The notes under the pieces: model-generated | Databases searched by the model: none | Told to the model about the DNA's origin: nothing | The model's input: the letters and a program-made list of their open reading frames with translations, nothing else | Translations under genes and position numbers: made by a program | Source of the DNA: Micromussa lordhowensis | Lineage: Eukaryota; Cnidaria; Anthozoa; Scleractinia; Lobophylliidae | NCBI GenBank assembly: GCA_964020085.1 | Contig: OZ026608.1 | Coordinates: 20,733,812 to 20,797,811, forward strand | DNA: 64,000 nucleotides | Direction of reading: 5' to 3' | In this document: positions 21,601 to 26,900 of the stretch, one piece after another | Layout of the letters: each line of letters starts with the position of its first letter | How positions within the stretch are numbered: the first letter of the stretch is position 1

Positions 21601-23951
21601 ATAACAGACGGAAGCGATCATAAAAGCACGTTACTAAACAGTGCTAATGAAATGGCGCAATATAAGGTACACGGCTCTCTGCGACCCACCCAACAAAAGC
21701 AGCAACACAATGTTACATTGTAATCCATTTTATTGCAGTCACTTTAAGAAGCTCTTTACATTATATACAGAAAACCAGAGTTTCAAACGGAAAAACATTA
21801 TGTACATACAATGTTGACAATACAATCTGATAACACAATCATTACAAATATTTTATATAGAGCGTTATACAACAGGTCTAATTGACACCTTAAATTTCTC
21901 TCAGTCTATTACTTGAGCCATTGTCACTGTCACTGCTAAAAATAATGGTGACAAAAAGAGTGAAAAGTATGGGAGAGGGAAATAAAACGCATTTTCATGT
22001 TACACATCCACATGCACTCAAACGAGGACATTTCCACCCTTTACATGGTAAAATTAATTCCATAATGCACTCCCCTTATCTCCTGTAAATTTATGCACTT
22101 TATTCACAGGAAAAGATAAATAGTTTCAACTGGAACAAACTTTATGTTTTCCACACTCAACAAAGAGATACAACTATCTTATAGTTTTGCTTGACAATTC
22201 TCACTGATTTTATAAATAATTCCGAAAGTACTTTCTGAATAAGTGAGTTCATTTAAGTCTAGGACACAATTTTGAAGAAACTCCCAATTTAAAACAATAG
22301 CAAGTTATCAGGAAAACAACACAGCACTTTTTAGTATTTCTTAAAACAAATGCTTTGAAAGTAACTACTGTTGTTGTCAATTTGGATTCATTGTATTGTT
22401 TCATAATTTCAAGAGAACCAATGAAAAAAAAAAATCAATCTTATCATATTGCAACTTGCATGTATCAGTTGCTGGTGATTTTGATTTGTAAAAGCAAACT
22501 AATTACCTACTAAAACTACATGCTGATTCACTGCATTCACAGTCATAACCTGCGCATTTCTTGTTTCTCACTGCTGAAAGCTATTAAGCCAACTAGTTAT
22601 CTACTAAAACTGCATGTACTTTCACTGCATTCACAGTCATTACCTGCACATTTCTTGTTTCTCACTGCTGAAAGCTATTAAGCCAACTAGTTATCTACTA
22701 AAACTGCATGTACTTTCACTGCATTCACAGTCATTACCTGCACATTTCTTGTTTCTCACTGCTGAAAGCTATTAAGCCAACTAGTTATCTACTAAAACTG
22801 CATGTACTTTCACTGCATTCACAGTCATTACCTGCACATTTCTTGTTTCTCACTGCTGAAAGCTATTAAGCTCAACCAGCATTGGAAAAAGGATTGTTTT
22901 CTCTTACTGTCATGTGTTCCATTTAATATATATGATAATTTGTCTGAAACTACTAAACAAGAGGAGCCTAACCTTAAAAGGCCTGGCCATTCTTACCCAA
23001 AATTGTCAATTTACAAATTACAAGTAACCTGTAATGCATAAGCAAAGTGTTCAACTACAAACATCATTTATGAAACTATTTAGTTTCTAATGAAAATTTG
23101 TACCACGGCCTACGTTCCTTTTTGTCATCCTCCTAGTCCAGGAACTTGATGGCAGACACTCAGCGAGTAGTTTTCTGCAAAAAAATGGAGGGGGGGGGGG
23201 GGGGGGTAAATACATGCACATATACTGCCAAAAAAACAAGCAGCTTACACAAGTGAAGTATTGAAACAGGAAAATATATCAACCCAAAAAATTAGTCACA
23301 CAAACTACTTTTGAAAACAAAGAAAAAGATGGAGTGCTCTTGTGTTTTGGTTATGGCATTAGAATCTGGGCTTGTATTGGCATGAAAACAGAAATTACCA
23401 GTGTGTAGTAAGCTGATCTCTACAAATAAAAGTGGATAGCTGACTATACAATGTCAATCCTGTGTGTGGATGCAGCAGAACAGTTAATTTTGCTCAGAAA
23501 CTACATGCCTTATAACAACATGAGACTTTGAAACCAGGCTTTAATAAAAAATCTTTTCATCCAAAAATCCCAGAAAATTTGTAAACTATGGGGTATAGAC
23601 AATAAATGTTTTGAATTATTCCTCTCACACCAAATGGCAAAACTTTCAAAAACTTATGTACAATTTATTCATTTCTAACAATTCCAGACACCTACAGTTG
23701 TATAATACATGTAGTCTGGCCTGGTTCACACTAGTGACATACACTGTAATGACATAATAATAAAACATTATTTCTGCTTATGTCAGTGATGTGAACATCG
23801 ACATAAAAACATAAGGGAAAGATGTTTCTTTTTGATTTTCTGTTGTTTTATGTTCATGCTCTTATGTTGCTATTATAACACAACTGTGTATGTCAGGATA
23901 TTCACTCAGCAAACCAAAACATCCTTTTAAGGAATGGACAATGTCTAGCGT

Positions 23952-23987
<36 letters not shown>

Positions 23988-26900
23988 GAGAGCACGAAGG
24001 TAGTGTAAGAGATGCTCGAGGTGCAGCCAAGAGCATCTCTAGCTACCTAACATTACTAATCTATGCATTCAATCTAATGTTTCATGATCACTAGAAATTT
24101 TTGCACACTCATTGGCTGTCTTTTATAATTTGTCAATATGCAGACAGACACATGAATTTAAGCTTATAAGTTATGTGATATGTCAACAAGTGAGAGCAAT
24201 TTCACAATAAATTTGTTTTGAGCTTTGTAACAGCATTGTCAAAGTAGTCTGTGGATCTACTTGGATATTGCCTTACAGATCTACAGGTACTTTGAAAATG
24301 TTATGATGAAATTAATCATCATTGATCAATAACAATCATCAATATTTATGCCCTTCCAAATCTGTAGTCTTTACATTGTCTTCATCATCATTTACTCTTT
24401 TGTCGAAACGTTTGCTTCGATCGAAGATTTGGTTTTGATGGAATGAACTCTCGATCGAAACAACCTTCGATCGAACTGACTTGTTTAATACCCTTAGTTT
24501 ACTTTATCCTTGAAACGGGTTAAACGTAGTCGCACAACACAACAAATTGCTGCAATTTTTGCTTACCTGATGTTGTTGTCTCGAACGCACCCACCGCCAT
24601 AATGATGTCTTCAAGGATACGAAGGATCGCCAGGACAAGAAGCTATGGTAAACTGGATTTTCCAAGCCAAAGCAGAGTTCAAACAGCGAAAAATGATCAA
24701 AAGATCGATCGACTCTTGTGCTGAATTCGACACTTTCCCACCTTCAAGAGGACGCCAGCATAGAAAATGGCGGGAAAACCGAGAGAACCTGGTACCTAAT
24801 GTGGAAAACCGCTGATAGAAGTCCCGGCCGGACCATTATAAATGCCCGGGCCAACAACTAAGCCAACAAACGATGATCCTCCTCTCTTTTAACAGTTTGG
24901 TTAAAAAGATGCGTAAAAACACTGATAACTAACACGCAACACGCTTTCCGAAAAAAACAACGCAAAGATACATTTTTATACGTTTACGCGTTCCATAAAG
25001 GTGCAGTAAGATCGTCCGGCGTAAAGAAAGTTAAACTTCCGTAAAGGTTGTTGCGTAAAGAATGTTACAGATGCGTAAAGTTTGTTAAGTGAAAGAGGTC
25101 AAAATAATTAGGCTTTTTTTTTTTTGAAGATGGAAAAGACATAATTATTTTACTTCTTTTAGCATTTCTCTAAATAGAAAGTTGTGGATTATATTCATGC
25201 AGATCCTTGTCCTTTACGAACATTTAATATCCTTTACGCAGTCGTTACGAGTTCTGGCGTAAAGAAAGTTAAAGGTCCGTAAAGGTTGTTGCGTAAAGAT
25301 TAGTAAAGAATGTTAAAGATGCGTAAAGTATGTAAAGTAAACAGGTCAAAATATTTGCGTATTTCTTTTGATAATGAATAAGACATAATGATTTAACTTC
25401 TTTGAGTACTTCTCTAAATAGAAAGTTGTGAATTGTATCCATCCAGATCCGTATACTTTACGAACATTTAATATCCTTTACGAAGTCTTTACGCACTCTC
25501 TGAATTTACGCATCTATACGGAACGTGGAACTTGTCCGTAAAGAAGAGGCCTTATATTTACGGTTCTTTACGCACGAGTTAAAGATCCGTAAATTTTTGA
25601 TTTCATGCTGTGGGTGATGAATGTTACAGATCATCACACAAAGCATGTTGCCCTTTACCCTTTGGCAGCTAAATCTGGGGAAAAAGTACTGGAAGCCTTG
25701 CAGCAACATTGTCATACATACGGATATCCTAAAAAAATAATATCCGACAATGGAAAAGAATTCTGTAATAAGAGTATGGAGACATTTTGCCAAAACAATG
25801 GGATAACTATGAGACACGGGGCACCAAGAACACCCACAACACAGGGTTTAATTGAAAGATCCAACAGGTCATGCAAGGAAGACATGCATACTCTCATAGC
25901 AAGCACAGCTACAAAGGTTTCGAACTGGTGCAAGAAGCTTGGCGAAATTTCATACACCAGAAATATAACCTACCACACTGCCATTAAGACATCTCCATAT
26001 GAAGCAGTTTATGGAATCAAACCACACAGGGAGCTACTACAACAAAGCATGGAAATTATTCCAGTAATAAACCCTCCACAGGTAGAGAACTTAAACCACA
26101 ATTTAGAACAAAATGCTAGTAACAGCCCTGAAGTTGAAGCTGATCATGATCTATCACAACCGGATGAACGCCAAAGAAAACGGCAAAAAATTTCAGCAAA
26201 CCAAGAAGCATATAACAAGAAAATGGTGGAACAAAGTAAAAAGAGAGCTGAACGAAAATCTAACCAGTTTAAAGTTGGAGATGTAGTTTCCATAAAAATA
26301 GACAAAGTCGATAAACCATCACCATTCTACCCTAATTTGCTTTTAGGTAAAATAACTGAACTTGAAAACCATTATGCCCGTGTAGTGACAAGGTTTGGCA
26401 AAATCAAAACACTTATTTCCCCTACAAGGTTAAACATTTGCACAGCTACCAATCTTACTTTTGATTATTCCAAAGAAATTACCTTTACATCAGCTTGCAA
26501 ACAGGCCAATGTTCAAACTGAATAATTTCAATGATAAAATAAATTATATCGTACTACACGGAATTAAGAACATGTGTAAGAACAATAACTGTATAATATG
26601 TGTTCTTGAAAAGGTTTGACAAATATTTATTGAGTCTTGTATTGAGGAAAAACATAGTTGAAATGTTGTTACAAAAGGACTCATTAAACAATATCAAAGT
26701 CTTCTAATTTTCTACTTATGAACTGTGTTTGTTTCACAACAATCCAATATTCTTATGATATCTGCACTATCCCTTATCTTGAATACCAACCATTACGGAG
26801 TTGAGCACTTACAGTAACAGTGCAGTCCTAATGCAGACTTGAGTTGAGTTTCATGGCGAGGTGGACCGTGGTACGAACTTGCTACACCAGCAATTGGCCA

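What the first reader, a model, noticed from the sequence alone, without database searches (positions are those of the whole stretch)
21890..24600. A small three-exon gene with a Cys-rich core hidden inside a CACTA-like transposon
On the minus strand three exons (24567-24600, 22507-22573, 21890-21935) have canonical GT/AG sites, compatible phases (34+67+46 = 147 nt) and an open frame of 48 residues, followed by AATAAA at 21729-21734. The core CAGYDCECSESACSF looks metal-binding or disulfide-forming. I know no family with it. Two explanations: a captured host gene carried by the element, or the remaining ends of the autonomous element's own gene after internal deletion. Either would be new information.
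Basis: partly seen in the sequence, partly recalled or inferred. Interest (0 to 1): 0.85.

Follow-up and report, generated by a model that had tools for sequence, protein, structure and literature searches.

The report
Broken gene remnant in CACTA transposon
The apparent tiny three-part gene is mostly an accident of one transposon copy: its last two parts are probably leftovers of a helper gene carried by larger relatives of this jumping DNA, and the first part reads on into them only because of a small insertion in this copy.

Summary
The three exons, splice sites, phases, 48-residue frame and AATAAA are present as described. On these signals alone they are no better than chance: 36 of 40 shuffles hold an equally good three-exon gene. 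The element is a real non-autonomous CACTA transposon of 4,487 bp (TIR CACAGCAYGAAA, TSD GGT, clustered CGTAAAG subterminal repeats) inserted in a KRBA2-like integrase ORF.

Other copies in the genome decide the matter. All seven other stretches found with exon 1 lack a 4-bp insertion that the window has; in all six of them that hold the three exons, the proposed frame stops at codon 12.

Exons 2 and 3 recur in larger relatives. These encode a tnp2 transposase (PF02992, E 4.2e-16) on the other strand and an accessory gene diverging from it; exons 2 and 3 fit as its last two exons (240-aa model). The window keeps a stub of that gene's main exon, with two stops. By-product: a conserved accessory protein family without a Pfam match.

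The parts
21126..25612 (.). non-autonomous CACTA-type transposon, 4,487 bp
   Evidence: TIRs, 3-bp TSD and subterminal CGTAAAG clusters, longest stop-to-stop frame 81 codons
21126..21174 (+). left terminal inverted repeat
   Evidence: 71% complementary over 49 nt to the right end
25564..25612 (-). right terminal inverted repeat
21123..21125 (.). target site duplication GGT, left
25613..25615 (.). target site duplication GGT, right
24634..24816 (-). module upstream of exon 1, 72% similar to L023 and L024
23112..23174 (-). stub of the accessory gene's main exon, KTTR*VSAIKFLD*EDDKKER, two stops
22492..22867 (-). tandem array of four 94-bp units carrying exon 2 or its donor-less copies
21729..21734 (-). 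AATAAA; also present downstream of exon 3 in L021
20530..21125 (+). 5' part of the KRBA2-like integrase ORF that the element interrupts
   Evidence: empty-site reading open for 501 codons
25613..26525 (+). 3' part of the KRBA2-like integrase ORF
   Evidence: rve E 3.8e-13; 44% to Nematostella KRAB-A domain-containing protein 2-like

Best explanation
The feature is the wreck of the 3' end of an accessory gene inside a non-autonomous CACTA transposon. Larger relatives in the same genome carry a tnp2 transposase on one strand and, diverging from it, a second gene: a coiled-coil-like first coding exon, a main exon with a YTSSDES...W core and, as modelled, two short exons ending in a C-x4-C-x-C-x4-C motif and a Ser/acidic tail. 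The window's element kept the two short exons, the poly(A) signal and a stub of the main exon with two stops. Its 5' half, with exon 1, is a promoter/first-exon module related to one in another element. A private 4-bp insertion in exon 1 shifts the frame so that exon 1 happens to read into exon 2. Shown: copies, TSDs, frames, stops, transposase match. Inferred: that the element is moved in trans by a related transposase; that the short exons are spliced to the main exon in the relatives; that the accessory protein binds the CGTAAAG repeats as TnpA binds its own in maize. The window copy should make at most a chance peptide.
For: Exon 1 is 34 nt in the window and 30 nt in 7 of 7 other stretches found; the frame stops at codon 12 in 6 of 6 other copies with all three exons. 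Exons 2 and 3 recur in six diverged copies, with four Cys in 6 of 7 relatives that show the Cys exon. A four-exon model in L021 is in phase and gives 240 aa. tnp2 transposase on the opposite strand of L019. The same two stops are in the stub of the window and of 7 of 7 other family A copies that have it. Perfect 3-bp TSDs in 10 of 10 copies read at both ends.
Against: Exon 2 is no better conserved than the intron (54-56 of 67, against 84-87% of aligned intron 2; exon 3 is higher, 40-43 of 43) and non-synonymous changes outnumber synonymous ones, in the five B copies compared. Fewer gaps in the exons is not significant (P about 0.1, and two of five copies have one). The donor from main exon to exon 2 is weak (2.8, against 5.8-12.1 for the others). 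Five distant accessory loci lack the Cys motif within 3.1-3.5 kb downstream. No fetched copy is shown intact in both genes: L021 has the four exons but a broken transposase, L019 an open transposase but a split exon 3. No RNA data.
Confidence: 0.7

Rival explanations
1. Exons 2 and 3 are not coding anywhere: the accessory gene ends at the stop two codons after the modelled donor of its main exon, and the Cys motif is a chance open frame in its 3' region.
For: Weak donor; no excess conservation of exon 2; five distant accessory loci lack the motif and close their main exon with their own stop.
Against: Phases fit through four exons; the Cys exon has no stop in 7 of 7 relatives; the poly(A) signal lies beyond exon 3 in window and L021; exon 3 is 40-43 of 43 identical.
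Confidence: 0.23
2. A captured host gene fragment carried by the element.
For: The Cys motif is missing from five distant accessory loci, so it could have been added from outside.
Against: All 15 genome matches to the exon-3 region are this element or its relatives; no protein relative of 26-84 or about 360-1,145 aa. The test is incomplete: 84-360 aa was not searched and the peptide genome search did not complete.
Confidence: 0.04
3. A working 48-aa gene newly created in this one copy by the 4-bp insertion.
For: Open frame, best donor of the region, poly(A) signal.
Against: 1 of 7 complete copies; equal structures in 36 of 40 shuffles; three more copies of the exon-2 acceptor lie between exon 1 and exon 2.
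Confidence: 0.03

Closest known systems
CACTA (En/Spm, EnSpm) transposons, Transposase_21/tnp2 type
   Same: CAC-type inverted ends, 3-bp duplication, clustered subterminal repeats, tnp2 transposase in the larger relatives
   Different: ends read CACAG instead of CACTA; the window copy has no transposase; in the relatives the second gene is on the opposite strand from the transposase
TnpA of maize En/Spm (comparison of role only)
   Same: a second protein of an element that has a tnp2 transposase and subterminal repeats (role described in passages of PMC2613891)
   Different: no sequence comparison with TnpA was made; DNA binding is untested; separate divergent gene instead of an alternatively spliced transcript
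SmTRC1 of Schistosoma mansoni, an animal CACTA element
   Same: Transposase_21 domain plus a further, poorly conserved protein proposed to act like TNPA (passages of PMC1636069)
   Different: its TIR core is CCC, its TSD 2 bp, and its proteins come from alternative splicing
deletion derivatives of CACTA elements
   Same: ends kept, coding middle lost, many near-identical copies
   Different: the 5' half is not the B relatives' own but resembles a module in L023/L024

Membership tests
CACTA (EnSpm) superfamily | inverted ends beginning CACTA or CACTG | tested here: inconclusive
   ends begin CACAG in 10 of 10 copies read at both ends; the consensus of the family is recalled and
CACTA (EnSpm) superfamily | short (2-3 bp) target site duplication | tested here: met
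   3 bp, perfect in 10 of 10
CACTA (EnSpm) superfamily | clustered subterminal repeats | tested here: met
   CGTAAAG 9 in the left 500 nt, 0 in the middle 3,300, 15 in the right 687, 4 in the rest of the window
CACTA (EnSpm) superfamily | tnp2 (Transposase_21) transposase | tested here: met
   met in the relative L019, E 4.2e-16; not in the window copy, where 20 interior frames gave no transposase match, so the window copy is non-autonomous
TnpA-like accessory proteins | binding to the element's subterminal repeats | not testable with these tools
   no assay; works-like inference only
TnpA-like accessory proteins | sequence similarity to TnpA | not tested
   no comparison made; 0 Pfam families at E 0.1
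   0 of 6 other copies with all three exons
   no RNA data

The most novel reading that the evidence does not exclude
CACTA elements of this cnidarian-type genome carry an undescribed accessory protein family (core KIxRR...YTSSDES.SEDE.G...W, 32 invariant columns in 8 aligned sequences) that diverges from the tnp2 transposase and acts as an animal counterpart of TnpA. One lineage has added a metal-binding C-x4-C-x-C-x4-C tail through two new 3' exons, one of which then multiplied as a 94-bp tandem array in the non-autonomous offspring.
Probability: 0.35. Interest if true: 0.5.

Novelty: new member of a known kind. Interest (0 to 1): 0.3.

Why it matters
As a gene the finding falls; it shows how splice signals in a transposon can give a convincing but accidental gene and how sister copies expose it. 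What remains is the accessory protein family of these CACTA elements: 59 matches to its main exon in this genome, some of them to the same copies, and no Pfam family. It could be tested as an animal equivalent of TnpA.

Tried and rejected
Tried without result: a protein search with the 48 aa (only proteins of 26-84 aa can match) and one with an X-padded 654-letter query (about 360-1,145 aa; 41 candidates, none at E 10 or better). Proteins of 84-360 aa, the size of the 240-aa accessory protein, were therefore not searched. The third search shows that the database holds cnidarian proteins. PDB gave one chance hit, haemadin, E 4.9. Rfam gave seven matches, all below their gathering scores. Pfam on 20 of the interior frames listed gave only weak matches (DUF7275 E 0.018, OmdA E 0.22) and no transposase. 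Pfam gave 0 families for the accessory model and four relatives.

Rejected: host gene capture; a new 48-aa gene; 'ends of the transposase gene' (the transposase is on the other strand). The idea that the array gives alternative exons was dropped: of the copies read, only L015 keeps a GT donor in both of its units, and family A has lost the rest of the gene.

Never answered (not completed): a genome search with the Cys peptide (and later, last 96), a PF02992 search, a search with 23372-24363.

Full report
OBSERVATION. As a gene model the signals are weak. With generic splice matrices recalled by me, 36 of 40 dinucleotide shuffles of 21600-24950 contain at least one three-exon gene that is as good. 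The real minus strand contains 146 such structures, which 3 of 40 shuffles reach. No protein relative was found at 26-84 aa or about 360-1,145 aa, although the database holds cnidarian proteins.

THE ELEMENT. It spans 21126-25612. Its ends read CACAGCACGAAAAG and, on the other strand, CACAGCATGAAATC, with 71% complementarity over 49 nt, and it is flanked by GGT on both sides. CGTAAAG occurs 9 and 15 times in the outer 500 and 687 nt, not once in the middle 3,300, and 4 times in the rest of the window. The element interrupts a KRBA2-like integrase ORF (rve E 3.8e-13; 44% identical to a Nematostella KRAB-A domain-containing protein 2-like). With one GGT kept, the flanks read as one open frame of 501 codons and a stop.

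COPIES. The window is G000:C14:20733812-20797811 of a 581-Mb assembly. The exon-3 region has 15 matches including the window: nine at 99-100% (family A) and six at 83-88% (family B). I fetched stretches around the 14 others; all align to the element, L012 only in part. Both ends were read in 10 copies, seven of A and three of B; all 10 have perfect 3-bp duplications. L011, L012, L017, L018 and L022 are not in that count because both ends were not read.

THE FRAME IS PRIVATE. Seven other stretches were found to hold exon 1 (L009, L010, L013-L016, L027). All seven lack the 4 bp that the window has after ATGGCGGTG. L027 may be the displaced 5' part of the copy whose 3' part is L011, since both lie on C4 about 40 kb apart. 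In the six that hold all three exons the proposed frame reads MAVRSRQQHQQ*. L011 and L012 show no exon 1 in the fetched stretch and do not enter this count.

WHERE EXONS 2 AND 3 COME FROM. Family B copies are larger. The one on C9 (L025 and L019 are overlapping stretches) is 11,481 bp with TSD TAA. The main exon is open in 4 of 7 B copies (L019, L020, L021, L033) and broken by shifts or stops in L017, L018 and L022. Further on lie the counterparts of exons 2 and 3. In L021 the four join in phases 0, 1 and 2 to 240 aa ending PVKNKKCQSYDCECGESTCGFSSDSDNGSSNKLSEI. The Cys exon has no stop in 7 of 7 B copies and four Cys in 6 of 7; L018 lost one. Exon 3 is split by an insertion of some 370 nt in L019 and L020; L018 has a small deletion there; in L033 the stretch reads N. 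No fetched copy is shown intact in both genes: L021, the source of the 240-aa model, has a deleted and interrupted transposase. The window keeps a stub of the main exon at 23112-23174 with two stops, KTTR*VSAIKFLD*EDDKKER, and so do 7 of 7 other A copies with that stretch. The coding loss therefore seems to predate the spread of family A.

EXON 1. The region 24634-24816, just upstream of exon 1, is 72% similar to L023 and L024. Their elements begin CACTGCGTGAAAG and have clustered CGTAAAG; no matching right end was found. A MAFFT alignment carried through exon 1 keeps the donor CAG/GTAAGC but not the ATG. The best reading is a promoter with a 5' exon that need not be coding. Without the 4 bp, exon 1 ends in phase 0, which would fit the main exon and not exon 2. 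No convincing match to this module was found in the C9 copy of B.

AGAINST THIS READING. In the five B copies compared with the window (L017, L019-L022; L018 and L033 were left out), exon 2 is 54-56 of 67 identical, slightly below aligned intron 2 (84-87%); exon 3 is 40-43 of 43. There are 5-8 non-synonymous and 2-4 synonymous codon differences over the two exons. Three of the five have no gap in the exons and two have one; the expectation from the intron is about two (P of none about 0.1). Family A is non-coding, so part of that divergence is expected to be neutral; that is an inference. The main exon among B copies gives rough dN/dS of 0.29-0.8 on few changes, and a transposase stretch of L021 against L019 gives 3 synonymous, 6 non-synonymous and 1 stop change. 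The donor from main exon to exon 2 scores 2.8. Five distant accessory-gene loci have no Cys motif within 3.1-3.5 kb downstream. I therefore give 0.23 to the view that exons 2 and 3 are not coding at all.

THE ACCESSORY FAMILY. The main exon has 59 matches in this genome, several to the same copies and many at 30-43% identity with open frames. Of five distant loci fetched, L028 and L032 also hold transposase sequence, divergent from the accessory gene, within the 6 kb taken; in the other three (5.5-6 kb) none was seen. Eight sequences (three of them B copies; L029 and L031 are nearly the same) align with 32 invariant columns. Pfam gives 0 families at E 0.1 for four relatives and the 240-aa model. 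In maize, TnpA is a second element protein that binds subterminal repeats, and CACTA elements carry such proteins with little sequence similarity (passages of PMC2613891). For the Schistosoma element a further, fast-evolving protein is proposed to do the same (passages of PMC1636069). A TnpA-like role here is inference. I do not claim that the family is unpublished: seven paper searches were made, seen as listings, and passages of two papers were read.

VERDICT. Its second explanation is partly right: these are leftovers of one of the element's own genes, but of the accessory gene. Interest 0.3.

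Noticed in passing
window 19950-20049 and 28509-28675: Two 19-bp minisatellites on either side of the KRBA2-like ORF, perhaps repeats of the element that carries it.
   Followed up: no
window 2834-31842, minus strand: Scattered PDZ exons and an L27 domain (PDZ E 1e-21, L27_2 E 2e-10; frames) of a large PDZ scaffold gene; the transposon nest seems to lie in one of its introns.
   Followed up: partly
window 48069-49286: Open frame of a rhodopsin-type GPCR (7tm_1 E 8.4e-50).
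   Followed up: partly
window 51968-53116: Reverse transcriptase frame (RVT_1 E 9.6e-22), a retroelement piece.
   Followed up: partly
window 45863-46120: A 125-bp tandem duplication, 98% matches.
   Followed up: no
L015 8123-8337: Two exon-2 units, both with GT donors; elsewhere in family A the extra units have AT. This may be the older state of the array.
   Followed up: partly
L019 8506-8894: Insertion of some 370 nt with inverted-looking ends in exon 3 of the accessory gene, also in L020.
   Followed up: no
L023 3539-4840: 434-codon frame that looks to me like a PIF/Harbinger nuclease (recalled, untested) inside the element that shares the exon-1 module.
   Followed up: no
L018, stretch inside the family B copy: Three long frames (878, 295 and 665 codons) that look like a retrotransposon inserted in the copy (recalled, untested).
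   Followed up: no
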